Notes under the pieces: model-generated
The model's database searches: none
What the model was told of the DNA's origin: nothing
The model's input: only the letters and a program-made list of their open reading frames with translations
Assembly: GCA_017551665.1 (NCBI GenBank)
Contig: JAFZLB010000110.1
Coordinates: forward strand, 1-40,579
Origin: Lachnospiraceae bacterium
Lineage (GTDB): Bacteria; Bacillota; Clostridia; Lachnospirales; Lachnospiraceae
DNA: 40,579 nt
Direction of reading: 5' to 3'
In this document: positions 1 through 13,718 of the stretch, one piece after another
How the letters are laid out: every line of letters begins with the position of its first letter
How positions within the stretch are numbered: the first letter of the stretch is position 1
Translations under genes and position numbers: made by a program

Positions 1-504
1 ACTTGTCAGCGTATCCGGATGGTCTTCTCCCAATGCCTTCTTTCTGCCATGATATGCCTGCTCATACAGCCGGCGCGCTTCCTCATGATCTCCGAGTTTA
101 TAGTATGAGAGCCCCAGATGATGCAAACTTATCAGCGTATGCGGATAGCCTCCTCCCAACACCTTCTTTTGTCCCTGATAGGCCTGCTCTAACAACCGGC
201 GCGCTTCCTCATGATCTCCGAGTTCATAGTATGAGAACCCCAGATTATGCAAACCGATCAGCGTATCCGGATGGTATTCTCCCAACACCTTCTTTTTGCT
301 CTGATACGCCTGCTCTAACAACCGGCGCGCTTCCTCATAATCTTCGAGTTCATTGTATGCTCCCGCCATATTGTTCAGACTTGTCAGCGTTTCCGGATGT
401 TCCTCCCCAAGGATCCGTTTCATGGTTTCGTATACATGCTCGCACAGATTCTTTGCCTGTTGATAATATCCCTTTTCTACGTATGCTGAGGCCAATTTAA
501 GCAG
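1..504 (-). repeat. Four tandem 126-bp units encoding TPRs
   Basis: Units start at 1, 127, 253 and 379. The first three are very similar in DNA as well as protein, for example the shared block CGGCGCGCTTCCTCAT; the fourth has diverged. Such near-identical coding repeats can gain or lose units by slippage or recombination. Confidence 0.85.
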
Positions 505-798: not shown

Positions 799-1254
799 TC
801 ATTCTGCTTCTCCGCGCAGCGCTTTCAGCTCTGCTCTCAGGCGATCGACTTCCGCCTTTGCGGCATCGCGTTCCTCTACTGCAGCATCGCGTTCTTTCTC
901 TGCACGCGCCAAGGCGTTCACGATCGTCGCGTGAACCTCCTCGTACTTTCTTCTCGCACGCAGAATCGACTGGTTATGCTGCTCCGCACTGACTTTGTAC
1001 ATCGCTTCCGCCACTTCAGACACCGCTTTGCTCCTTTCCGCAAGAGCCTTCAACTCCTCCCAGGTTTCGGCTCGAAACACCCTCGCCCAGTAATCCAGTC
1101 TGTGTTCCTTATCCTCATCCGTTGCAAGACGGATCCGGTTCAATGATAACACATTCATCCCAAAGATTGAAGTATAGACCATCCCGGTCTTTACATTCAT
1201 CATCAGGTACTTCGCGTAAAACTCCGGATGCTCCGGAAACAGATCACCGTCCAA
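799..1254 (-). pseudogene. Truncated Rpn/PD-(D/E)XK nuclease-family transposase (C-terminal half only)
   Basis: The 151 codons match the C-terminal half of the full-length paralogue at 2828-3742 (DGDLFPEHPEFYAKYLMMN here, DFDLFPSHPEFYAKYLMIN there), including the coiled-coil tail rich in Glu, Ala and Arg. The N-terminal nuclease fold with its Asp...Glu-x-Gln site is missing. The only possible start is a TTG at 1254 with no ribosome binding site, and the homology stops exactly at the palindrome that joins it to the 3' end of the transglutaminase gene. I read it as a decayed fragment left by recombination. The terminator behind it is intact. Rpn-family proteins are recombination-promoting or conflict-related nucleases; this copy cannot be catalytically active. 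Confidence 0.8.
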
Positions 1255-2827: not shown

Positions 2828-3742
2828 TTAACTCAGTTTCGCAAGCTCAGCACGGAGCCGCTCAATCTCCAGCGTTTTCTGCTCATTATCCTGTGCTATT
2901 AGCTTGATCTCCTTTGCCTGCTTGCGGTTCTCGCGCTTTTGACGGCGCAGTTCCTTCTCCGCGCGCTCCAACGCGCCCTTCGCCGTCGCGTAGTCATGCA
3001 GATATCTTTCGTGCATTTCCAAAAGGACTCTCTGTTTTAATTCCGCGTTTGCCTTCGCCATCTTCTCCGTCACCTCCATGAATACAGGATTACCTTCACT
3101 TAAGTGTCTGAGCTCTTCCCATGTACCGGCCAGAAACAGCTTTGCCCATTGCACCAGGCCGTTCCGATGATCTTCTTCTGTCGCCAGTTCTATCTGCTTC
3201 AATGATAACACATTTAGGGCAAAATCGGGAGAGTAAACATTTCCGTTTCTGATATTGATCATCAGGTACTTCGCGTAAAACTCCGGATGTGACGGAAACA
3301 AATCAAAGTCCATGATCCCCACATGTGTCGCGGGTTTTGTTTTATCATAATCATCCCCGGACTGCAAATGATCAAATGTCCTTCCAAGATACAGCAGCGA
3401 GCGCGGAATCCACCCCTTCTGATTCCCTATCTGCACCTCTATATCCAGATACTCGGCATTGTTCAACTCGACACGCACATCCATCACGATATGCTTGCTC
3501 AGCACCTCGTTGTAATCGACCGGTGTCAGCAGCTTGACGGTTTTGACTTCTTCCTCCCGCAGGCCCTTCAGGGCACAGATCAGTCCCTTCAGCGCACGCT
3601 TTGATTTCGACATGACCATGTGAAACATCATGTCGTTTTTGAGCGACGTTTCAATAGTGCCACTTGCGCCCGCAAGTTGCCTGGACAAACAATCGTCGTA
3701 ACGAATCCCGGACACCCTGCCGGCTTCCAGCGCATCCTTCAT
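2828..3742 (-). CDS. Rpn/PD-(D/E)XK nuclease-family transposase with a chimeric N-terminus
   Basis: From about residue 33 (SLKNDMMFHMVMSK) this is a typical member of the Rpn/PDDEXK_2 family: helical start, then the nuclease core with Asp88 in IVMDVRVEL and Glu102-x-Gln104 in LDIEVQ, a middle motif FPSHPEFYAKYLMIN, and a C-terminal coiled coil. Family members promote recombination or act in conflict systems; they are often amplified in gut Clostridia. The first 19 codons, and 10 more before the ATG, are not Rpn-like: they encode the zinc-binding tail of RsgA (see 3686-3775) in the same frame. The ATG at 3742 has GGAG 7 bases upstream, so translation may really start inside borrowed rsgA sequence. 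The gene follows the STAND NTPase by 52 bases and is probably cotranscribed. The paralogue at 799-1254 is truncated. Confidence 0.85.
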   Translation of the reverse strand: MKDALEAGRVSGIRYDDCLSRQLAGASGTIETSLKNDMMFHMVMSKSKRALKGLICALKGLREEEVKTVKLLTPVDYNEVLSKHIVMDVRVELNNAEYLDIEVQIGNQKGWIPRSLLYLGRTFDHLQSGDDYDKTKPATHVGIMDFDLFPSHPEFYAKYLMINIRNGNVYSPDFALNVLSLKQIELATEEDHRNGLVQWAKLFLAGTWEELRHLSEGNPVFMEVTEKMAKANAELKQRVLLEMHERYLHDYATAKGALERAEKELRRQKRENRKQAKEIKLIAQDNEQKTLEIERLRAELAKLS

Positions 3743-3775
3743 CGCGCACTCCGGTTCCGTCAGGTGAGTGCATTT
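3686..3775 (-). pseudogene. Fragment of a second rsgA gene (C-terminal zinc motif)
   Basis: Minus-strand translation gives CTHLTEPECAMKDALEAG followed by RVSGIRYDDCL. The intact RsgA in this window has CTHLTEPDCAVKEALSEG followed by KIARLRYEDYRLL. At the DNA level 39 of 44 bases agree between 3729-3772 and 12907-12950. The upstream Cys and the GTPase domain are absent, so only the tail was carried along. Its frame runs straight into the Rpn gene. Confidence 0.85.
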
Positions 3776-3794: not shown

Positions 3795-6700
3795 TCAGTC
3801 AGAAATAATAGCTATCCTTACGTCGCGCACCCGTTTACAATAGCTTTCTTCTAATACGTGCTCTTTTCGTTCTTTCTGTCCAAAGAATCTTTTTAATCCA
3901 AAGGCCTTGTCTGACAATTTCGAAAACCTGCCTTTTTCTTTATTGACTTCATTTTTCCTAGCCTCTCCAAAACCATCACCACCATCTTCCTGATACGCAT
4001 CTCCATTTTCTTGATCATAGTATTGCTCATACGGTATATACTCAACTATGCCGTCTACGCTTGCCGCAAGGTGAAAAAGATCAACCGTATCAAAAATATT
4101 ACTATCATAAATGTCCACAACGCCCATACCCCTCGTATGTATAAAGGAATCCGGCAACTTTTTTTCGCACTCATAGGCCACGAGTTGCTCCACCCCCTGC
4201 AATTCTTTTTCCAATGCCCATAACAGTTTACGATTCTCCGACGTGCGAATGAATGTGTCCAATTTTTGAAAAATCGGCGCCAAAACATGATTCCTCAGCA
4301 CATCAAAGCGTTTATTGAGAAACAGCTTCTCCATAAACAATCCGGCTTCCTTTTTAAAGGATGCGTATGATGTATAGGGATTGATTTCATCCAGCGCACG
4401 CAATGCCTTTTGGGTTTCCGTTTCAACCCATTTTACGATAATTTCATCTGTCATATCTGCAAACACATCCTCTCCTGCTGCAACACAAATATCAGAAAAC
4501 GCCATCAGCCTGTAATAATCCAGATGTTCCGCATCATCCTGATATTGTCTGCGCACCCCTCTCCCGACATCCCTGCACAATTTATGACAAATCGTATGAT
4601 CACCATATCCTTGGCACAGCAAATACAGATCAATTACATTATCCGTACACAGGATATGGTTCCGGATCGAATCCGGAACAGGCTTTTCGAAAACAATACG
4701 ATAGTAGTTTTCTGTATCATATCCATATACGTATTCTGATAGCAAGCGGATTCTGTTGGCTGTCCGTGAAACATATTGCATCAAATAGCGAAAAACACCC
4801 AAGGATTCTTCTGAAGGTATCTGAAGTTGTTTGATCTCTGCCAACCATTCTGTCAGCCGCTTTTCATCAGGAACGCCCAGTTTTTTTCTCAGCGCCTCTA
4901 TGGGCTCCAGATCCTCATCCTCCAAACATCCAACATCATACAACAATTCATCACGCAAATCCTGGAGATCACATTTGTTATCCAGCTTTATTTGTTCCTC
5001 CAACGCGTTGGTTACGCGCTCTCTAACATCTGACGCGATGTCTGAATGACGCAGGATTTCCTGCAGATACAGCGTATAACGAGTCGCGCATGTATATACC
5101 AGCCCCCCCTCCGAACGCCTAAGGTGTATCGACGCTTCTATTTGCGCATGCAAAACCCACTGCAACAATTCCTCTATTCTGTCCGCTTCGCAGAAAGCAG
5201 TTACCATCCTGGAAATATGCATCCCAAAAAGATTATTTAATAACTCGCGTTCTTCTTCTTGTTCAAATACTGCTTCTTCCGGTATGACAATCCAGTCTTT
5301 CAAATGCTCCACATTATCGCCAGCCATAATCCGGTCGACAATACAATTGATGATAACCGGAAACAATTCATTAAACGTTTCATTAAACTGTTTCATATCT
5401 GAAAATAACCAAAACTTGTTTTCACGGTACTCCTTCGGAAACAGAAGCGGCGTTTCACTTCCATAGCCATCATGGAGAACGCATTGCTCTATCAACGTCA
5501 AGGATAGCTGACAGATCCGTTTTTTCATTGACTCGACCCTGTCTGAATAACTGACTCTTCGAGATTCAAACTCTGTTGCAAAACGATAAACATCGTTCAC
5601 AAAGTCCGTTTGATAAAACAACTCTTCCAAATGATAGTTATCCGCACATTGACGCATCGAAGCAATCGACTGAACCCAAAAATCACATATTCTGAATTGT
5701 TCTTCCTTTCTTTCACCAAAACCACCATTACAGAAATCCTCAACCCAAAAAGAAAACGCACTTTGGAACTGACGCATGACCGATTCGACCTTATCGTGAT
5801 AGTGTTCCAGCAAATAAAGCCTGTATTGCCAATTTGACAATTCATACACCCTGCCATAGCCAGTACTTTTCGCCGTCAACACCGGCATCATGTCATTCAG
5901 TCTACCGATAAATGCATAGGATAAATCGTCTGCGCCGATCAAATCACAGTACTCTTCCAATGAAAGCTGTCCATACTGGGCTATTGCCACAAAAAACTGC
6001 AACATCTTTTGAAAAGACTTTTCATCACTGCAGCTTTGCAGGTATTCCATGTAGCACCTGAAAGCGTCTGTCTCCGTACTCCCCACATCTGACAAGACAT
6101 CCAGTAAGGGCAAAAGAATCTTAAGACGAAGCAATCTGTAATCCGCCATTTTCAACAATTCTTCTGTTTGCATATCGCTAATGTTCTTTCTATGGTTGCT
6201 TTGTATCCATCCGGCAGCATATTCTTTTAAGACCGCCTGATTGATCGGATCATCTCTTCGAATATCAATACAAACGTCAGCCTTCTTTCGAACAGATGCA
6301 ATCCGAGTCGCTACAAAGTCAGAGACATCCGGTTCATCCGAAAACCTGGATGTACAAATCACAAACACCCCCTCATTCAGCTGTTCTCCGTCGGGTATAA
6401 AATCCGCAACTCTTTCGGTTTGCTTTGTGATTTCATCCAGACCGTCAACAACAAGAACCAGCCGATCGATACCTTCCGTTTCGCGATACAGCTTTTGATA
6501 TGCATTCAGAAGATGTGCCATGGCAACCGCCGGTTCTTTTTCATCCAATCGGATGCGGGGAAGTCCCTCTTCCGCAGGGCGTATCACGTCCGCAGAATGA
6601 TAGCTTTTACGTCTGAAATCCTCATTCATTGCATTGATAAAATCACTCATTCCCCGAATCTGAGCTGTTGCAAACGAATAGGATCTGACAACCGCATTTT

Positions 6701-7748
6701 TTATTAAAGATCGGGTCATCAAACCGTCCATAGAATAACAAAACGCAGTCTTTCCCGTTCCCCTCTCCATGGACAGTAGCAGGAGACCCCTCCCATCCGG
6801 GTTGTCAAAAAACGTATTTATGCGTTCCAAAAGCTTTACCGGTTTTTTGTACTTATCCGGCTCATGCATCTTTTTCAAAAGCAAATCATCTTCTGTGCTT
6901 AAATACCGCTTCGTCACACCCTCATTCAGTCTGAGCTTCATTTGAAAATAACTCAGGAAAAGCTTATCCGATGTAGTCTCTGTTTCTCCCGAATAACAGT
7001 CCACATATTTCACCGCCCTTCTTCTTGCGTAAAAAGAATCAAGAAGAAATCGTTTTCCGGAAGAAAACTTCCCAAGCATAATCGTCTCACCCTGAATCGA
7101 CAACGCCGGATTACCATCGGTAAGCGAATCCATATCCACATCTCCGATAAGAGGAATATCGTTTAACACAAAAAAGCATTCCTGATAAGATGGTTTTTCT
7201 TTTTCCAGCTTAAAAACGTATTCCCTGTAATGATGCATCAGTTCATGAATCTCTTTCCGATAATCATCGTGATTTTCAAATTTCAAAGCCCCATGGCCAA
7301 TTGTATCATTACGCCAGGCAACAATATCTGGATAATCACCCACTTTTAAGCGGTACACATCCTGTGTTGCGCAGATCACATCTACAAGGTCTGCAGGTAT
7401 CGAGAAAGCCTTTGCCGCCTTATTGATTTCAACCGACAGTTCATACCAAGCCCCCGACGACATGGGTTTTTGGGTGAGAATCCTCATAATGTTTTGATTC
7501 CCCGTCAATTTATCTTCATCTTTGTGATCCATATAAATAAGCGCCATCAGCGTTGGAATCTTTAATGACACCTCATAAAGATCACGAAACGCAAGCATTG
7601 CACCATACACATTTCCCTTTTCCATTTGTTCCCTAAGACGAAGATAATCATTCACAATCGGCGCAGGCCAAGCTCGCCGTGTCATTTCATCCAAGGCCCA
7701 CAAGCTTTCATCTTCTGCCAGTTCTTTGATCCACTTTGTTTTATCCAT
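3795..7748 (-). CDS. Large STAND/NACHT-type NTPase with HEPN-like N-terminal motif, 1317 aa
   Basis: This looks like a signal-transduction ATPase of the STAND class. Residues 1-190 are helical and contain AWRNDTIGHGAL: Arg146, Asn147 and His152 fit the R-polar-x(n)-H motif of HEPN ribonucleases. A degenerate P-loop (LGKFSSGKR) lies at 225-233. The main NTPase has a Walker A with GTGKT at 330-334, where the usual first Gly is Met, and a NACHT-style Walker B VVDGLDE at 433-439. TSR at 466-468 fits the sensor position. The remaining 800 residues are helical and probably form the ligand-sensing superstructure; the end is charged and low in complexity. The ATG at 7748 follows AGAGGTG. In known systems such proteins detect phage proteins and trigger an N-terminal effector; that role is inference here. 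DNA composition is more AT-rich than in the neighbouring housekeeping genes. Confidence 0.8.
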   Translation of the reverse strand: MDKTKWIKELAEDESLWALDEMTRRAWPAPIVNDYLRLREQMEKGNVYGAMLAFRDLYEVSLKIPTLMALIYMDHKDEDKLTGNQNIMRILTQKPMSSGAWYELSVEINKAAKAFSIPADLVDVICATQDVYRLKVGDYPDIVAWRNDTIGHGALKFENHDDYRKEIHELMHHYREYVFKLEKEKPSYQECFFVLNDIPLIGDVDMDSLTDGNPALSIQGETIMLGKFSSGKRFLLDSFYARRRAVKYVDCYSGETETTSDKLFLSYFQMKLRLNEGVTKRYLSTEDDLLLKKMHEPDKYKKPVKLLERINTFFDNPDGRGLLLLSMERGTGKTAFCYSMDGLMTRSLIKNAVVRSYSFATAQIRGMSDFINAMNEDFRRKSYHSADVIRPAEEGLPRIRLDEKEPAVAMAHLLNAYQKLYRETEGIDRLVLVVDGLDEITKQTERVADFIPDGEQLNEGVFVICTSRFSDEPDVSDFVATRIASVRKKADVCIDIRRDDPINQAVLKEYAAGWIQSNHRKNISDMQTEELLKMADYRLLRLKILLPLLDVLSDVGSTETDAFRCYMEYLQSCSDEKSFQKMLQFFVAIAQYGQLSLEEYCDLIGADDLSYAFIGRLNDMMPVLTAKSTGYGRVYELSNWQYRLYLLEHYHDKVESVMRQFQSAFSFWVEDFCNGGFGERKEEQFRICDFWVQSIASMRQCADNYHLEELFYQTDFVNDVYRFATEFESRRVSYSDRVESMKKRICQLSLTLIEQCVLHDGYGSETPLLFPKEYRENKFWLFSDMKQFNETFNELFPVIINCIVDRIMAGDNVEHLKDWIVIPEEAVFEQEEERELLNNLFGMHISRMVTAFCEADRIEELLQWVLHAQIEASIHLRRSEGGLVYTCATRYTLYLQEILRHSDIASDVRERVTNALEEQIKLDNKCDLQDLRDELLYDVGCLEDEDLEPIEALRKKLGVPDEKRLTEWLAEIKQLQIPSEESLGVFRYLMQYVSRTANRIRLLSEYVYGYDTENYYRIVFEKPVPDSIRNHILCTDNVIDLYLLCQGYGDHTICHKLCRDVGRGVRRQYQDDAEHLDYYRLMAFSDICVAAGEDVFADMTDEIIVKWVETETQKALRALDEINPYTSYASFKKEAGLFMEKLFLNKRFDVLRNHVLAPIFQKLDTFIRTSENRKLLWALEKELQGVEQLVAYECEKKLPDSFIHTRGMGVVDIYDSNIFDTVDLFHLAASVDGIVEYIPYEQYYDQENGDAYQEDGGDGFGEARKNEVNKEKGRFSKLSDKAFGLKRFFGQKERKEHVLEESYCKRVRDVRIAIISD

Positions 7749-7923: not shown

Positions 7924-8034
7924 GTCGCTCCTCCTTTGTGTTTGTTGTTTTCGCTTCCGACCGTTTCAGCATAGCATCCCGTTTTGCAGAAAAAATGGAC
8001 ATAACAAAAGTGCCCCGCGGGGGGGCGCTTTTGT
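7921..8034. repeat. Dispersed leader/terminator cassette, copy B
   Basis: Copy of the block at 2664-2774, with the same order of ribosome binding site, TTTTCGCTTCCGACCGTT, CAGCATA and GC-rich hairpin. It leads here into the signal-peptide remnant. Confidence 0.7.
8002..8032 (-). terminator. Probable terminator of the WYL-WYL-DUF3800 operon
   Basis: AAAAGCGCCCC pairs with GGGGCACTTTT on the minus strand with one mismatch, followed by a broken T-run (TTTTGTTATG). It is 51 bases past the stop at 8084. It is weaker than the related hairpins at 746 and 2752, and some read-through into the STAND gene is possible. Confidence 0.55.
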
Positions 8035-8083: not shown

Positions 8084-10318
8084 TCAATGGAAGCTGAATG
8101 TTACCATCCGGTCCAGATTAGCAATCGGGATTTCCTCTCCGGTCACGCCGGTAATACCTTCCGCCCCGAGGTCGCGTAATATTCGAAGGCTTTCCCTGCA
8201 CAGCGCCTCATCCTCTTCCGTCCGGATTCCCTGCATATTGTGCAGCGTCAGAATGGAATGGTTCCGGATCACGGCAAGCGTCTTTTCTTTCTCTTCATTG
8301 ATCTCTTCCCGCAGGAGGTGCTCCTCATATTTTTTCGCAACCTTGTCCCGCCCGCACTTTAAGGCAATCATCGCGATATATTTGTAAATCAGCAGTATCG
8401 GATGCCCCTGCCACTTCCCGGCCGTCTCCTTTTCCATTTCCTTCATGCTGTCTTCCCATCGGAAGATCCGGTCTGCGGTTTTTGACGGGAGTGTCTCCGC
8501 GCAAAAATGATACAGCCCCTTCAGGAACACATAGGCGGCAAAGCGCATCGCGGTCTCAGCCGTGCAGGCAAGTCCCGCGATATAACGCATCTGTTCCTCC
8601 GGTTGCGTTTTTCCGCCGAAGTATTCTGCCGCATGGGCTTCAAATTTTTCACGCTCGTTATGATCCGCATAGAAATGCAGCAGATAAGATTGTGTGATCG
8701 CGTAATCGGCTGTGCCCGCATCCATCTGGGACAGCGCTTTCAGGAAGATCTCTTCTGCTCTTTTGTCATCTTGGAATGCATAACACTGGCCCAGCTGGCT
8801 TAAGCATTTCCCGTAATCCACCTGTTTTTCCGTCTTCACGTCCAGCAGTTCCTGTATTTCCATCATCATCTCGTAGGCATGGACGGTCTCCTCCGTATAT
8901 GCTTTTGCCGCTTCAAATTTGAATTTGTCGCATATGGAAACCGCTGCATTGTTGCGCATGGAATACAGTCGTTGAAGCCCGGTGTACGGTTCAAACTCCC
9001 TGCTCTTATTCCTGCATTCATCCGATTCATTTGTGCGGCCGGAGTGGTTGTAAATCCTGGCACCGGCGGCATACAGATCAAACAGCACTGCCCGTTCCTG
9101 CGAATCCCGAAATCCGACATGGCTGGCCAGTGCCTCCAGGCGCTGATAGAAATACAGCAGTTTGCTGTCAGCCCGATGACTGCTTTGGGTTGCTTGCGCC
9201 AATGCCTTTACCGCCTGCGTAAACGATAGTACGTTGACCCTCTTCTCCATCAGGCTTTGCAGTTCCGGCTCCCACACCTTTTTGTAAAACGCGGCAGCCT
9301 CGCCTTCTCCCCGCGTCGCGTGGTACAGATTCTGAAGACAGTGATACAGTTCGTCGCGTTCCAGCGCGTCCCGGGCCTGCGTATAATATGTGTCCGCGTC
9401 ATCATACAGAAACAGGATGTGCCGGTTGCCGCACAGTTCCCTCATCCGTTCCCGGATGACCTCCGTATACACCGGCTCCGTGCGATAGTTCAGCTGATAC
9501 CCGAGATGTGTACAGACGGCATCCGCCAGATAAAGAAATTCTTTCCCTCTTCCTTCCTTTACAAGTTCGTCTTTCTCATAGGTAATCGAACGGACAAACA
9601 GTCCCGCAATATCCTTCTGCTTATACGGAACGCCTGACATTTCCCTCGCCAGGGAAGTCCGGTAAAAATCCGCGCTCACAAGCGGGATCCCGTCCTCATA
9701 CTTCCCGGTATATTGACCGGTCTCTATATAGCCATTCAGTATTTCTCTGTTCTTTGAAACATACATACGTGATGCCAGATCCAGACAGACCACCTTCTGT
9801 TCTCCGAGCCGTTCATTATGGAAAAGCACGCCGGACAGGGCATCCATCGTCATGTGAAGATACAAATTGCTCAGCTTCCCGTCATCGTCAAGGTTGCTCC
9901 ATAAGGTCTCTTTCCCCTTCCTGCTTTTCACATAGGCGTACACATAGTATTTCCCTTTCCTCGGTTTTCCGTCATCGGAAAGCAGGTCCTGTCCGTCGTA
10001 GGTTCCTTTGGTCAAAAATTCCCCGAGCTTTGGGCGATAATATTCCTTCACCCTTCCCACGGTTTCATTGTTCGTTTTGCTTTCGTTGACGTGAAGATCC
10101 ATGGGATAGTTCGCACCGGTCTCCCGGCAAACTCTCTGAAAAAAAGTACGGATTCTCTGCCATTCGCGCTTCACCTCCGCATTGTAGCAGTTTTTCACCC
10201 CCTCGTCTTTCAGATCGTCAAACACCACTCCGCCGATGAAGCAAAAGTCGTTTGTCTTGTGTTTCGATGTCCCATCCCGTTCAAACAATCCGCCTTCATC
10301 CATGGAAATTGTAATCAT
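8084..10318 (-). CDS. DUF3800-like (RNase H fold) protein with C-terminal TPR region, 744 aa
   Basis: The N-terminal 290 residues fit the DUF3800 layout, a family with an RNase H-like fold and acidic active site. MDEGG at 6-10 corresponds to the usual DESG start, then FIGGVVF, DLHVNES at 74-80, VVCLDLASR with Asp180, and YLADAVCTHLGY with Asp266 as the closing acidic motif. The rest (about 300-744) is helical with TPR-like pairs such as YGKCLSQLGQCYAFQDDKRAEEIFLKAL. The ATG at 10318 overlaps the stop of the WYL gene by 4 bases and has AAAGGAG upstream, so it belongs to one translationally coupled operon. DUF3800 proteins are frequent in defence islands and are thought to be nucleases; the fusion to TPRs and the pairing with two WYL regulators suggest a sensor-effector. 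The domain call rests on motif spacing, not a search. Confidence 0.72.
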   Translation of the reverse strand: MITISMDEGGLFERDGTSKHKTNDFCFIGGVVFDDLKDEGVKNCYNAEVKREWQRIRTFFQRVCRETGANYPMDLHVNESKTNNETVGRVKEYYRPKLGEFLTKGTYDGQDLLSDDGKPRKGKYYVYAYVKSRKGKETLWSNLDDDGKLSNLYLHMTMDALSGVLFHNERLGEQKVVCLDLASRMYVSKNREILNGYIETGQYTGKYEDGIPLVSADFYRTSLAREMSGVPYKQKDIAGLFVRSITYEKDELVKEGRGKEFLYLADAVCTHLGYQLNYRTEPVYTEVIRERMRELCGNRHILFLYDDADTYYTQARDALERDELYHCLQNLYHATRGEGEAAAFYKKVWEPELQSLMEKRVNVLSFTQAVKALAQATQSSHRADSKLLYFYQRLEALASHVGFRDSQERAVLFDLYAAGARIYNHSGRTNESDECRNKSREFEPYTGLQRLYSMRNNAAVSICDKFKFEAAKAYTEETVHAYEMMMEIQELLDVKTEKQVDYGKCLSQLGQCYAFQDDKRAEEIFLKALSQMDAGTADYAITQSYLLHFYADHNEREKFEAHAAEYFGGKTQPEEQMRYIAGLACTAETAMRFAAYVFLKGLYHFCAETLPSKTADRIFRWEDSMKEMEKETAGKWQGHPILLIYKYIAMIALKCGRDKVAKKYEEHLLREEINEEKEKTLAVIRNHSILTLHNMQGIRTEEDEALCRESLRILRDLGAEGITGVTGEEIPIANLDRMVTFSFH

Positions 10319-11379
10319 CTCTCTGTCTCCTTTCCCGTGATGTCTTCCCTGATTTTCTTCATCTCGCGAATAATCTCATTCCTGAGTTTCGTGGGTTTCT
10401 CCACAACGACGGAGCTGCCGTAGCTCAGCACCCAGGACCGGAAGGCCTCATAGCCGTAAACATCATCCTCAAACACCAGACAGTCTCCGTCCTCCGTCAG
10501 CCTCGCGTATTTGCGGTTGGCCGTGTCCCGTCTGACCTTTGCCTGCACATTCGCCTCCGGATAAAAACGGATCCTGACGCGCACCGGCTTGTCCGTCATC
10601 TCAAACCCCCAGAGCTGATGCAGCTTTTCGAGCACGCCAAGATCCGGCTGCGCCGTTTTGCAAAGCTCCTTCTGCTCTATGTGGTCAATCTCCGAAAGCG
10701 GAATGATCAGCGGCTCCCCCTCCTTCGTCAGCGTGACCAGCGCGTGCTCGTTGTTTGTCGCGTCGTAAAGCACACGGTAGGGACGGACGCGGGGCGGAAA
10801 TCCGTGCCGTTTCCACAGATAACGCAGCTTCAGCCACCTGCCGTTCGGCGAAAGCTCTCCCGGCATGGCGTCCAGAATCATCTTCAAGTATTCTGTCAGG
10901 CGTTCGGTACCCGCGGAGCGGAAGCTGTCCTTGATCGACAGCGCCGGCAGCAGCTTCCGCGTTTTCTTCCTTGTGATTTCGTCATAATTGCGGCAGGCCG
11001 TATATTCCCCCACCGTCAGCGGAATCTTGTAAAGGCCGTCCCTGGGATTCGGCAGAAAACGGACACTGTCCGCCCGGCCCTTTTGAATCATTTTTTTGTC
11101 AATATTGACCACCAGCGCCCCGCGCATATCCTTTGCCGTTTCAAACAGGGATTTGTTTTGCAGCGAAGGCTTCCGGTCCCTGGACAGGGGCATCACCATT
11201 TTGAAGGAAAACATCTCCGCGATGTCCTTGCGCACCAGCGACAGCGGAAAGTCCAGAATCTTTGCGCACTCTTTGATGCTGATCCCCGTCTGATCCGCCA
11301 GTTCTTCCTCTGTCGCGCTACTCATCAGATACAAATACTGTGTCATCCGCCAAACCGGATCCGTCATTTCTTTACGCAT
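10315..11379 (-). CDS. WYL-domain transcriptional regulator (second of a pair), 354 aa
   Basis: The first 80 residues form a helix-turn-helix region (ATEEELADQTGISIKECAKI). The middle holds a WYL-like SH3-barrel segment (RVRPYRVLYDATNNEHALVTL, then PLSEIDHIEQ), and the end has the WCX-type tail (YGYEAFRSWVLSYGSSVVVEKP followed by a terminal helix). WYL proteins bind nucleic acid or nucleotide ligands and control DNA-damage or anti-phage genes (PafBC, CapW and BrxR are known examples). The start ATG at 11379 has GGAGGTGG upstream and overlaps the preceding WYL gene by 8 bases. The two proteins differ a lot in sequence and length and may work as a heterodimer, as PafB and PafC do. Confidence 0.8.
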   Translation of the reverse strand: MRKEMTDPVWRMTQYLYLMSSATEEELADQTGISIKECAKILDFPLSLVRKDIAEMFSFKMVMPLSRDRKPSLQNKSLFETAKDMRGALVVNIDKKMIQKGRADSVRFLPNPRDGLYKIPLTVGEYTACRNYDEITRKKTRKLLPALSIKDSFRSAGTERLTEYLKMILDAMPGELSPNGRWLKLRYLWKRHGFPPRVRPYRVLYDATNNEHALVTLTKEGEPLIIPLSEIDHIEQKELCKTAQPDLGVLEKLHQLWGFEMTDKPVRVRIRFYPEANVQAKVRRDTANRKYARLTEDGDCLVFEDDVYGYEAFRSWVLSYGSSVVVEKPTKLRNEIIREMKKIREDITGKETER

Positions 11380-12781
11380 GCTCCACCTCCCCGTAACGCT
11401 CCAGCACTCTTTGCGCCGTCGCCGCCATCCGCTCCTTCAGCTTCTGCGGCGCAATCACCCGCGCCTCACTGCCAAACTGCCGCAGGAAATTCGCAAAATC
11501 CCCGATGCCGCTGACCGTGTCCGAATACAACAAGGCATCGCTCTGTTCCTCATACAGCGCATGCCGCCTGCGCGCTTCCAGTCCCGACAACAGCTTCCGG
11601 TTCCGCTCGGTGTTTTTGAACCGGACCTCCACCCGTACGGTTTTTTCCGTCGAAACGCTGAAGGCCGTGTCCAGAAAGCTGCGGCAGTCTTCGCTGTCAT
11701 ACCAGTCGTTTTTCCGGTTCGTCGCGCTGACCTTCAGCAGCTGATCCATATCGATGATGCGGTACACATCCCTGCGGGAAGACTGCTGCTCCTTTTTCGG
11801 AAGGGCGCTCTTCTTGACGCGCTTTCCCTTCCGGTGCGTCACGATATAAAGCTTATCCTTCTCCACCGAATAGACAATGGCGCCGACGCCGAATTCCTCC
11901 CAGTGCTCACCGCTTTTGTCACGCAGCTTTCCGCGCACCATGGTGGTCCGGAAGGGAATCCCGTCAAAGAGACGCATCCGTTCCTGCACGGAATCAAAAT
12001 GCATATAGGCTCTGCCGACGGCGATGACGCGCTCATCCTCAAAGACCGCGGACTGCTCCGCGCCCAGCGCCGTGGCCACCTTCTGATGAATGCTCTCCCA
12101 GTGCTTGTCAAAGGGCGTTCCGCCCTTCAGGTTTTCCAGCATGGCGAAAAACTCCCAGCACTGCTCCTCGTTCAGCTCCAGTACCACGGGCACGGAACGC
12201 GGTGCCAGGTGATAGATTTCCAAAGGCTCATCTTCCAGCGCGTCTCCTGTGGATAAGGTCCGGATCACCTCCCCGCGTCCGACCATGTCTTCAATCACGG
12301 TCTTTAACTCCTCGCGGCGGACCTTGACCGCCATCATGTCCTTGCTCTTTTTCTGATACTGTTCCACGACCGTTTCCCACATCTCGGAGGCTCTGAGATC
12401 CATCTGCCGCTTGATTTCATGCAGATTCATCTCCCGGTCGCGTTCGCTCTCCAGGATGCGCGTGACGTGATAGCGCAGCACGGCGTTTCTGTCGATCGGT
12501 GCCGGCAGCTCCGCCCCGTCGTCCTTTTCGCGCTTTGCGCCCGCAGCGACCGCACGCTTTTGTTTTTTCTCCGCAAGGTAGTACAGGGGCGTCCGCTGCT
12601 CCTTCCTGCATTCCACGGGCAGGTCCCGTCCCCGCAGCTCCTCGATGTAATTGGCGAGGGACTGCCTGCTTTTCATGCCGAGGCGCTTGATGATCTGGTC
12701 ACCGGAAATCCCTCCCGCCGGCGTCTCCTTCTCCAGAATCTTCAGTAACATGTCCAGCCGTTTTTCCTTTGATCCACTCAT
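11372..12781 (-). CDS. WYL-domain transcriptional regulator (first of a pair), 469 aa
   Basis: The N-terminus is a winged helix-turn-helix (GGISGDQIIKRLGMKSRQSL), followed by a charged linker rich in Lys and Arg and a second helical segment around residues 95-165. The WYL core includes WEEFGVGAIVYSVEKDKLYI and VYRIIDMDQLLKV; the WCX tail includes SDTVSGIGDFANFLRQFGSE. The gene begins 19 bases after the rsgA stop with an AAAGGA ribosome binding site and no terminator between, so it is probably expressed with the housekeeping operon. As the first gene it is the natural regulator or ligand sensor of the three-gene cluster. An internal promoter near its start is possible, but I see no clear one. 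Confidence 0.82.
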   Translation of the reverse strand: MSGSKEKRLDMLLKILEKETPAGGISGDQIIKRLGMKSRQSLANYIEELRGRDLPVECRKEQRTPLYYLAEKKQKRAVAAGAKREKDDGAELPAPIDRNAVLRYHVTRILESERDREMNLHEIKRQMDLRASEMWETVVEQYQKKSKDMMAVKVRREELKTVIEDMVGRGEVIRTLSTGDALEDEPLEIYHLAPRSVPVVLELNEEQCWEFFAMLENLKGGTPFDKHWESIHQKVATALGAEQSAVFEDERVIAVGRAYMHFDSVQERMRLFDGIPFRTTMVRGKLRDKSGEHWEEFGVGAIVYSVEKDKLYIVTHRKGKRVKKSALPKKEQQSSRRDVYRIIDMDQLLKVSATNRKNDWYDSEDCRSFLDTAFSVSTEKTVRVEVRFKNTERNRKLLSGLEARRRHALYEEQSDALLYSDTVSGIGDFANFLRQFGSEARVIAPQKLKERMAATAQRVLERYGEVEHA

Positions 12782-12800: not shown

Positions 12801-13718
12801 TTACCCCTTTTTTGCCTTCTTCACATATACCGGACGTTCGCCGCGCAGCTCCTCATAGAGCAGGCGATAGTCCTCATAGCGCAATCGCGCGATTTTTCCT
12901 TCCGAAAGCGCTTCCTTCACCGCGCAGTCCGGCTCCGTCAGGTGTGTGCAGTTATCATAGCGGCATTTGTCCGCGTACGGTTCAAATTCGGGAATCCACA
13001 AATGCAGATCACGCGCGTCCGTGTTCTCTGTTTTCAAAGACATGAAGCCCGGCGTGTCGCAAAGATACGAGGGCACGCCGCAGGCATACGCCTCCGAAAG
13101 CGCAAAGAGCTCGCTGTGGCGCGTCGTGTTCCTGCCGTGCCCGGTCTTCCTTGAGACATCCCCCGTCTCCATCCCCGCCTCCGCGCAGAGCGCGTTGATG
13201 AGCGAGGACTTGCCGACGCCGGAGGGGCCCGCGACCACAGAGGTCTTGCCCTTCAGCTCCGCCGCGAGTTCCCTGATCCCCCTGTCCTCGGCGACGCTGA
13301 TCGCGTGCAGGCTGCAGCCGCTCCCCGCGTAATCCTGAAGCAAAGACGCCGCCTGCGCCTCGTCGAGATCACGCTTGTTGAAGCATAGCAAAAGCGGCAG
13401 TTCCTTTTGCCGCATCATCACCAGAAAGCGTCCCAGCAGGTGATGGTTGACGGCAGGCGCCGCGCAGGCAAAGACCAGCAGCGCCTGGTCAATGTTGACG
13501 ACCGGCGGACGCAGCAGTTCGTTTTTTCTGGGATGGATGCTTTCGATATTGCCCTCTTTGTCAGCCTCATGCGTGACTTCAAAGGACACATTGTCTCCCG
13601 CGAGCGGCCGGATGCCTTCGCGGCGGAAAGTGCCTTTTGCCTTGCACTGCCAGACGGTGCCGGTTTCCGTGCGAACATAAAAAAAACCGGCAACCCCGCG
13701 GATGAGTTTGCCTTCCAC
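12801..13718 (-). CDS. rsgA: Ribosome small-subunit-dependent GTPase RsgA
   Basis: RsgA is a circularly permuted GTPase that checks late 30S subunit assembly. The order of motifs is characteristic: an N-terminal OB fold, then G4 NKRD, then G1 GPSGVGKSS, G3 DTPGF, and finally the zinc-binding tail CRYDNCTHLTEPDC. The length of 305 residues is normal. The start is GTG at 13718, with AGGGGG just before it and 8 bases after the stk stop, as is usual for the stp-stk-rsgA order of Firmicutes. What normally follows (often rpe) is replaced here by the WYL operon. A piece of another rsgA tail occurs at 3686-3775. Confidence 0.96.
   Translation of the reverse strand: MEGKLIRGVAGFFYVRTETGTVWQCKAKGTFRREGIRPLAGDNVSFEVTHEADKEGNIESIHPRKNELLRPPVVNIDQALLVFACAAPAVNHHLLGRFLVMMRQKELPLLLCFNKRDLDEAQAASLLQDYAGSGCSLHAISVAEDRGIRELAAELKGKTSVVAGPSGVGKSSLINALCAEAGMETGDVSRKTGHGRNTTRHSELFALSEAYACGVPSYLCDTPGFMSLKTENTDARDLHLWIPEFEPYADKCRYDNCTHLTEPDCAVKEALSEGKIARLRYEDYRLLYEELRGERPVYVKKAKKG

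What the first reader, a model, noticed from the sequence alone, without database searches (positions are those of the whole stretch)
8084..12781. Three-gene WYL-WYL-DUF3800/TPR operon: candidate undescribed defence or conflict module
Two different WYL regulators and a 744-residue protein overlap each other by 8 and 4 bases, so they are made as a unit. The third protein has DUF3800-like motifs (MDEGG, DLHVNES, CLD, YLADAV), which point to an RNase H-like nuclease, and a helical TPR-like second half. WYL proteins are ligand-binding regulators of anti-phage and DNA-damage genes, and TPRs usually sense. The combination suggests a regulated sensor-nuclease; I know of no named system with this composition. 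Seen: operon layout and motifs. Inference: defence role.
Basis: partly seen in the sequence, partly recalled or inferred. Interest (0 to 1): 0.75.

Follow-up and report, generated by a model that had tools for sequence, protein, structure and literature searches.

The report
Cas13a helper genes without Cas13a
Three overlapping bacterial genes turn out to be relatives of little-studied genes that sit beside the RNA-cutting CRISPR enzyme Cas13a, here kept without a detectable Cas13a and next to a different predicted RNA-cutting defence protein, which suggests a helper kit that can move between defence systems.

Summary
The three overlapping genes are real but not an isolated new module. The 744-aa protein and both WYL proteins have homologues in type VI-A CRISPR loci; in Lachnospiraceae NK4A179 the order is cas13a-744-WYL-WYL. 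Of 19 loci found through the 744-aa protein, 11 have cas13a within 1.2 kb of it. Of 6 family genomes found through Cas13a, 4 have the 744 gene near it. The own genome (91.4% complete) shows no Cas13a, the window no CRISPR array. A near-complete genome, G547, also keeps WYL-WYL-744 without Cas13a. Downstream in the window, and directly after the 744 gene of distant G797, lies a P-loop NTPase with a conserved HEPN-like motif. Best reading: a portable accessory kit of RNA-targeting defence, here beside a predicted HEPN-NTPase. The 744-aa protein is an alpha/beta domain plus TPR-like helices. DUF3800/RNase H identity is likely from motifs and published analogues but was not confirmed. Mechanism is inference.

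The parts
11372..12781 (-). WYLa: 469-aa WYL/WCX regulator, first gene of the operon; starts about 20 nt downstream of the rsgA stop
   Evidence: homologous to a WYL protein of the NK4A179 Cas13a locus, 26% identity over 286 columns, E 3e-27 for that one comparison; leave-one-out profile E 5.4e-33
10315..11379 (-). WYLb: 354-aa WYL/WCX regulator
   Evidence: homologous to the second WYL protein of the NK4A179 Cas13a locus, 28% identity, E 2e-34 for that one comparison; leave-one-out profile E 2.8e-30
8084..10318 (-). 744-aa protein ('744 family'): N-terminal alpha/beta domain plus TPR-like helical domain
   Evidence: homologues beside or near cas13a
9401..10318 (-). N-terminal domain (residues 1-306), candidate DUF3800/RNase H-like nuclease; invariant D7, E8, E52, R55, H76, R184, D266
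   Evidence: models; invariance in 17 sequences; family membership not confirmed
8087..9400 (-). TPR-like helical domain (residues 307-744)
   Evidence: AlphaFold2 model and Foldseek matches to TPR and similar repeat proteins; weak Pfam TPR_12 match in 5 of 12 family members, not in the window protein
8004..8034 (.). terminator-like hairpin after the 744 gene, reported on both strands
   Evidence: consensus match only; 20 such sites found in the stretch against 11.4 expected
3795..7748 (-). 1317-aa P-loop (STAND-like) NTPase with a HEPN-like motif near its N-terminus; candidate effector partner, probably its own transcription unit
   Evidence: Pfam NPHP3_N 24.9 bits against cut-off 24.8, AAA_16 below cut-off; homologue directly after the 744 gene in L070
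7293..7313 (-). HEPN-like R-x5-H motif of the NTPase (R146 to H152)
   Evidence: conserved in the window, L070 and L075 copies; HEPN reading recalled, no profile match
12801..13718 (-). rsgA, intact housekeeping gene directly upstream of the operon (context)
3689..3775 (-). diverged fragment of an rsgA 3' end just beyond the NTPase gene: other edge of the putative island

Best explanation
The operon is a form, without a detectable Cas13a, of an accessory cassette that many Lachnospiraceae type VI-A CRISPR loci carry in whole or part: a tandem pair of WYL/WCX regulators and a protein with an alpha/beta, probably DUF3800-like nuclease, domain on a TPR-like scaffold. Shown: homology of all three proteins to proteins of Cas13a loci, recurrent adjacency of the 744 gene to cas13a, no Cas13a found in this genome, a second genome with the same three genes and no Cas13a, and recurrence of the 744 + HEPN-motif NTPase neighbourhood in one distant relative. 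Inferred: the WYL pair senses an infection signal (perhaps single-stranded RNA, which WYL1 of a Cas13d locus binds) and controls expression or activity; the TPR-like part docks onto a partner RNase (Cas13a elsewhere, the HEPN-NTPase here); the N-terminal domain cuts or processes nucleic acid and strengthens or limits the response.
For: cas13a within 1.2 kb of the 744 gene in L005, L006, L007, L008, L011, L015, L018, L027, L053, L054, L055 (profile-confirmed for 7 genomes) and 3.6 kb away in L083. WYLa and WYLb homologues in 5 of these 12 Cas13a loci and in L028; in L053, L054 and L055 they are divergent from 744-cas13a, a usual layout for a regulator. Own genome: no Cas13a by NF038188. G547 (99% complete, 2 contigs): no Cas13a, yet WYL-WYL-744 in the layout of its Cas13a-bearing sister L053, 100/100 support, with a nearby gene of the family that directly follows cas13a in L084 and L085. 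NTPase homologue in 1 of 15 other 744-bearing genomes searched, and there directly after the 744 gene. Model of the 744 protein: pLDDT 81.1. Papers: PMC6547453 (abstract), PMC10910872 and PMC12669027 (passages).
Against: The window differs from the Cas13a loci in gene order (744 last, WYL genes first) and its 744 protein is only 27-35% identical to the other members. The own genome is 91.4% complete and was not scanned for CRISPR arrays outside the window, so a Cas13a system elsewhere is not excluded. 7 of 12 Cas13a loci show no WYL pair (L006, L008, L011, L015, L018, L027, L083; some cut by contig ends). The partner role of the NTPase rests on two loci; its paralogue in the same genome (L075) has no 744 gene beside it, a terminator-like site lies between the two genes in the window, and the L070 copy is interrupted. 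HEPN is a motif call only. DUF3800/RNase H not confirmed. 2 of 6 Cas13a genomes have no 744 gene in the stretches read. L012, L013 and L017 have neither Cas13a nor a recognised HEPN partner. No functional data.
Confidence: 0.6

Rival explanations
1. Decaying remnant: a type VI-A locus lost cas13a and its array, and the accessory genes have not yet decayed.
For: G547 (L028) looks like that: the layout of Cas13a-bearing sister L053 without cas13a. In the 744 tree the window falls, unresolved, on the same side as the ten Cas13a-linked members (a split with 82/78 support; midpoint root for drawing only).
Against: In the window all three ORFs are intact, with overlapping stops and starts and a gene order not seen in the Cas13a loci read, beside a HEPN-motif NTPase that also follows a 744 gene in a second lineage. 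A long branch with intact ORFs suggests upkeep, but with one sequence selection could not be measured.
Confidence: 0.2
2. The 744 protein is a stand-alone nuclease or toxin-like protein controlled by the WYL pair, independent of Cas13a and the NTPase; its neighbours merely share defence islands.
For: Solo copy in Butyrivibrio FCS014: no Cas13a in the genome, no PADLOC match in the 6 neighbouring proteins scanned; the neighbour list was partly cut, so other neighbours were not judged. Other neighbours are AbiP2 and AbiE.
Against: Cas13a is rare (6 of 397 family genomes), yet is beside the 744 gene in 11 of 19 loci found by the 744 search; spacing is often tight (4-nt overlap in L005, 2 nt in L008, 20 nt in L027).
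Confidence: 0.15
3. Ordinary regulatory or housekeeping genes read through from the rsgA operon, unrelated to immunity.
For: WYLa starts about 20 nt after rsgA, so read-through from the rsgA transcript is plausible.
Against: No WYLa, WYLb or 744 match within the 1.5 kb flanks of rsgA in 11 of 11 same-genus loci read; patchy distribution, 4 of 299 family genomes; defence neighbours in most of the other loci.
Confidence: 0.05

Closest known systems
Type VI-A CRISPR-Cas loci of Lachnospiraceae and kin (NK4A179, [Clostridium] aminophilum, Eubacteriaceae CHKCI004)
   Same: 744-family gene near cas13a in all three; tandem WYLa-WYLb pair in NK4A179
   Different: The window has no cas13a or CRISPR array, and the 744 gene follows the WYL genes
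TPR + DUF3800 protein beside a Cas12a2 sub-branch (PMC10910872, passages); DUF3800 nuclease in some VI-F and V-A2 loci (PMC12669027, passage)
   Same: Same reported domain pair, beside class 2 effectors
   Different: Those sequences were not at hand, so homology was not tested; the window has no CRISPR effector
WYL1 accessory protein of type VI-D (PMC6547453, abstract)
   Same: WYL protein encoded with a Cas13; WYL1 binds ssRNA and boosts Cas13d
   Different: RspWYL1 has a ribbon-helix-helix N-terminus; here two WCX-bearing WYL proteins and no Cas13d search was run
PafBC and BrxR WYL regulators (PMC9122601, passages)
   Same: WYL with the WCX extension; two WYL regulators side by side (the PafB-PafC pair is recalled)
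   Different: PafBC regulates DNA-damage genes; no sequence comparison with it was run
Avs-type antiviral STAND NTPases (recalled; search listing and abstract starts only)
   Same: Large P-loop protein of STAND-like layout in a putative defence island
   Different: No PADLOC match; a HEPN-like motif in the N-terminal part

Membership tests
Type VI-A CRISPR-Cas locus | cas13a in the locus or genome | tested here: not met
   NF038188 finds none in the own genome, 91.4% complete
Type VI-A CRISPR-Cas locus | CRISPR array | tested here: not met
   no spaced repeat array in the window; the rest of the genome was not scanned
Accessory cassette of type VI-A loci (as defined here) | 744-family protein plus homologous WYLa and WYLb encoded together | tested here: met
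DUF3800 (PF12686) | match to the Pfam model | tested here: not met
   0 of 12 members at E up to 1
DUF3800 (PF12686) | DESG ... D ... LAD motifs in order | tested here: inconclusive
   hhalign P 0.013, 0.0042 with 17 rows, 28-30 columns, probability 3-8%; a forced full-length alignment puts the motifs opposite each other at low confidence; one of 30 column shuffles scored far higher
DUF3800 / RNase H fold | RNase H-like fold | tested here: inconclusive
   model pLDDT 77.5, six strands with interspersed helices; Foldseek: no match at E 0.001 or better, RNase H1 3u3g at E 1.4
TPR superhelix | TPR-like helical repeats | tested here: met
   Foldseek top matches are TPR and similar helical-repeat proteins, two at E below 0.001; Pfam TPR_12 in 5 of 12 members, none in the window protein itself
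WYL/WCX regulators | WCX domain and WYL profile match | tested here: met
WYL/WCX regulators | N-terminal DNA-binding HTH | tested here: inconclusive
   HTH_11 below cut-off in WYLa (0.0051), none in WYLb
STAND / Avs NTPase | P-loop STAND-type NTPase domain | tested here: met
   NPHP3_N just above its cut-off, 24.9 against 24.8 bits
STAND / Avs NTPase | match to a known Avs model | tested here: not met
   PADLOC
HEPN RNase | HEPN fold around R-x4-6-H | tested here: inconclusive
   motif conserved in 3 homologues; no Pfam HEPN match; fold not modelled

The most novel reading that the evidence does not exclude
The 744 family is a general, portable partner of HEPN RNases, passed between type VI-A (Cas13a), type III-D (CARF-HEPN Csx1 in the locus), HEPN-motif STAND NTPases (window and G797) and an AbiU2-like HEPN gene (G547, in the place of cas13a), doing the same job for each, for example processing the cleaved RNA or adding a second nuclease step, with the WYL pair as a sensor-regulator. 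The window would then be a crRNA-independent version. L012, L013 and L017, which show no HEPN partner, count against it.
Probability: 0.3. Interest if true: 0.85.

Novelty: new variant of a known kind. Interest (0 to 1): 0.63.

Why it matters
Cas13a of such bacteria is widely used as a tool (recalled), yet a review read here in passages lists no small accessory protein for type VI-A (PMC8209922). If the WYL-WYL-744 genes are real partners, the native Cas13a response has regulated components that laboratory work has left out. Their presence without a detectable Cas13a, beside a HEPN-motif NTPase, would make it testable whether CRISPR and innate defence share interchangeable parts.

Tried and rejected
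Rejected: that this is a free-standing three-gene novelty (homologues lie in Cas13a loci). No sign of plasmid or phage carriage: no match to the 744 protein in the plasmid or phage collections nor a confirmed one in viral contigs. Not established: DUF3800 by Pfam, by profile-profile comparison, by fold; PDB sequence searches gave one chance-level row (E 0.22) and none. The second-look structure library was not on the machine. The BFVD fold search gave repeat proteins and chance rows, one at E below 0.001. Which of the two rsgA 3' ends is native could not be decided: the intact gene scores better against the sister tails in 11 of 11, as expected of the working copy (one search was a failed parse of the same question). 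DUF3800 controls: unrelated-family comparisons with the 744 profile scored 16.9-24.2 against 28.6 observed; 29 of 30 column shuffles scored at most 19.7, but one scored 138.6 (99.2% probability) for reasons I did not resolve, so the control is not clean.

Dropped or weak rows: L056 (partial gene at a contig edge) says nothing about partners, and G602 (L029) matched only in the TPR part, so it is not counted among the loci although it is one of the 6. L054 and L055 are two loci of one genome. L015, L055, L012 and L027 are cut by contig ends. L009 begins 444 bases from its contig end, so its upstream side is unknown. L083 was found through Cas13a and is left out of the 11 of 19. L018 has 1,137 nt and L055 480 nt between the two genes. 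G797 was not searched whole for Cas13a; the 19 kb of L070 show none by single-sequence search.

The identity range is corrected to 27-35%.
Full report
WHAT IS THERE. The three ORFs are as described: minus strand, 469, 354 and 744 aa, overlaps of 8 and 4 bases. The first starts about 20 nt after the stop of rsgA, which follows a PASTA kinase gene, so read-through from that operon is plausible; a terminator-like hairpin at 8004-8034 lies after the 744 gene (consensus match only). The two regulators carry the WCX extension and match PADLOC's WYL profile. The 744-aa protein has no family match.

RELATIVES. Searching 299 genomes of the family with the 744 protein gave 4 with a match, the own genome included. 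An order-wide profile search gave 6 of 392, one of them (G602) only in the TPR part; the genus of G547 gave 5 of 29; a phylum-wide search 2 of 398. These samples overlap. The species collection gave 11 loci, three of them the same records as family hits (L010 = L005, L014 = L006, L016 = L007). Without duplicates and G602, 19 loci were found through the 744 protein, the window included: window, L005, L006, L007, L008, L009, L011, L012, L013, L015, L017, L018, L027, L028, L053, L054, L055, L056, L070.

CAS13A. In 11 of the 19, cas13a lies within 1.2 kb of the 744 gene: L005, L006, L007, L008, L011, L015, L018, L027, L053, L054, L055. NCBIfam NF038188 matches the partial genes first read in L002-L004 (the L004 piece is below the cut-off) and whole genes over the cut-off in 7 of 13 genomes searched; L015, L053, L054 and L055 rest on single-sequence matches. 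Spacing ranges from a 4-nt overlap (L005) to 1,137 nt (L018). Repeat arrays were seen in L005 and L006, L011, L015, L016 (= L007) and L018, L027 (4 copies) and L053, and L083; none in L008, L009, L012, L013, L017, L028, L054, L055, L056 or L070. The other 8 of the 19: the window; L009 with type III-D genes (Cas10, Cas5/Cas7 III-D, CARF-HEPN Csx1); L012 with a split AbiP2 reverse transcriptase; L013 with no partner recognised; L017 with a truncated 744 gene and AbiEi/AbiEii; L028; L056 (contig edge); L070. Going the other way, 6 of 397 family genomes have Cas13a, and 4 of these 6 have a 744 gene near it (G004, G177, G293; G1105, 3.6 kb away); G277 and G288 have none within the 19.9 kb read.

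THE WYL PAIR. Window WYLa and WYLb align with the two WYL proteins of the NK4A179 Cas13a locus (E 3e-27 and 2e-34 for these single comparisons). Profiles built without the window sequences find them at 5.4e-33 and 2.8e-30. Both families occur together with the 744 gene in L005, L007, L028, L053, L054 and L055; in L007 WYLa is a longer, distant member (3.6e-21). In L053, L054 and L055 the pair is divergent from 744-cas13a. Of the 12 Cas13a loci with a 744 gene (the 11 plus L083), 5 have the pair.

CASES WITHOUT CAS13A. The own genome (91.4% complete) has no Cas13a by NF038188. G547 (99%, two contigs) has none either, yet L028 keeps the divergent WYL pair and the 744 gene; its 744 protein is sister to that of Cas13a-bearing L053 with 100/100 support, and a 552-aa gene nearby belongs to the family that directly follows cas13a in L084 and L085. 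Where cas13a stands in L053, L028 has other genes, one with a weak, below-cut-off match to HEPN_AbiU2 (E 0.0077). The genomes of L009, L012, L013 and L017 have no Cas13a either. The 744 protein of the type III-D locus L009 is sister to that of the Cas13a locus L018, 100/100, and L018 carries an RT-Cas1; PMC6753606 (passages) reports that the RT-Cas1 of CHKCI004 clusters with type III-D. So exchange between III-D and VI-A has a precedent. In the tree of 16 full-length members the window is unresolved; it lies with the ten Cas13a-labelled members, L009, L013 and L028 on one side of a split (82/78) from L012 and L070, the root being a midpoint for drawing only. Its branch is long (1.78) and the tool warns of long branches meeting.

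THE NEIGHBOUR. The next gene, 3795-7748, is a 1317-aa P-loop protein (NPHP3_N 24.9 bits against 24.8). In L070, from another family of the same phylum, a 28%-identical homologue follows the 744 gene by 130 nt and ends at what looks by eye like an IS66 element (not profiled). The NTPase search found 2 of 299 family genomes (own, and G118 with another N-terminus) and 1 of 15 other 744-bearing genomes (G797). The motif W-R-N-[DE]-[TE]-[IL]-G-H-G-A-L-K-F-E is conserved in the window, L070 and L075 copies; it resembles the R-x4-6-H of HEPN RNases (recalled), but no HEPN profile matched. Against a fixed pairing: the own-genome paralogue in L075 (45% identical) has no 744 gene beside it.

ISLAND EDGES. 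A fragment resembling residues 256-284 of RsgA (55% identity) lies at 3689-3775, about 20 nt beyond the NTPase gene. The four genes thus fill the space between an intact rsgA and an rsgA 3' fragment, as if they had moved as a unit; which copy is native is undecided. None of 11 same-genus rsgA loci read shows a WYLa, WYLb or 744 match within 1.5 kb on either side.

FOLD. AlphaFold2 gave a usable model (pLDDT 81.1, pTM 0.76): residues 1-306 alpha/beta, the rest helical. Foldseek matched TPR and similar repeat proteins. The N-terminal domain alone (pLDDT 77.5, pTM 0.83) had no significant PDB match; CasPhi appeared at E about 0.5 and RNase H1 3u3g at E 1.4 among chance matches. Profile comparison with canonical DUF3800 proteins was weak (P 0.013; P 0.0042, score 28.6, unrelated families with the 744 profile up to 24.2; the shuffle control was not clean). 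A forced full alignment puts DExG, a mid-domain Asp and LADxxC opposite DESG, D and ADxxA of DUF3800 at low confidence. I judge DUF3800-like at about 0.65, from motifs and the published TPR+DUF3800 precedent, not from a passed test.

HOW IT MAY WORK. Known: WYL1 binds ssRNA and boosts Cas13d (PMC6547453, abstract). A TPR+DUF3800 protein accompanies a Cas12a2 sub-branch, and its authors predict an RNase H fold with rearranged catalysis (PMC10910872, passages). Inference: an RNA-triggered or infection-triggered HEPN RNase (Cas13a, or here the NTPase) is the main effector; the 744 protein docks on it through its TPR-like part and cuts or processes nucleic acid; the WYL pair senses a nucleic-acid signal and sets expression. 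Beyond homology and adjacency every step of this is unproven.

NOVELTY. No paper that describes a 744-type protein or a WYL pair in Cas13a loci was seen in the listings of six library searches; several listings were capped (20 of 118, 20 of 3,122, 12 of 1,100 papers), and only PMC12669027 held all four terms Cas13a, WYL, accessory and DUF3800. That paper names DUF3800 in VI-F and V-A2 loci (passage) and draws WYL genes as dispensable in its type II and VI figure (legend). Supplementary tables and most subscription papers were not seen, so an earlier listing there is possible.

Noticed in passing
window 3689-3775 (-): Diverged fragment of an rsgA 3' end just beyond the NTPase gene; with intact rsgA at 12801-13718 it brackets a four-gene, about 9 kb putative island.
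   Followed up: partly
L075 5964-10070 (own genome, contig C64): Paralogue of the window NTPase, 45% identical over residues 1-922, with the same HEPN-like motif and no 744 gene beside it.
   Followed up: partly
L028 3001-4659; L084 12971-14566; L085 7882-9570: A further uncharacterised protein family that directly follows cas13a in two genomes and is present in Cas13a-free G547.
   Followed up: partly
L028 6407-7984: 525-aa protein with a weak HEPN_AbiU2 match (E 0.0077, below cut-off) downstream of the 744 gene, in the place where relatives have cas13a.
   Followed up: partly
L006 6043-7788: 581-aa protein in the C. aminophilum Cas13a locus: weak similarity to the defence kinase MAD6 (1.5e-5, below cut-off) and a part that matches the 744-family TPR region.
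   Followed up: no
window 799-1254 and 2828-3742: Two Rpn/PDDEXK_2 nuclease-like genes or fragments next to the island.
   Followed up: no
window 6-398: Three direct repeats of 141 nt spaced 126 nt apart, overlapping an ORF at the window's edge.
   Followed up: no
L070 12854-15134: IS66-like genes (by eye) directly after the NTPase piece that follows the 744 gene.
   Followed up: no
L012 8272-9980: AbiP2-type reverse transcriptase split into two overlapping ORFs beside a 744 gene in Veillonella sp. VA139.
   Followed up: no
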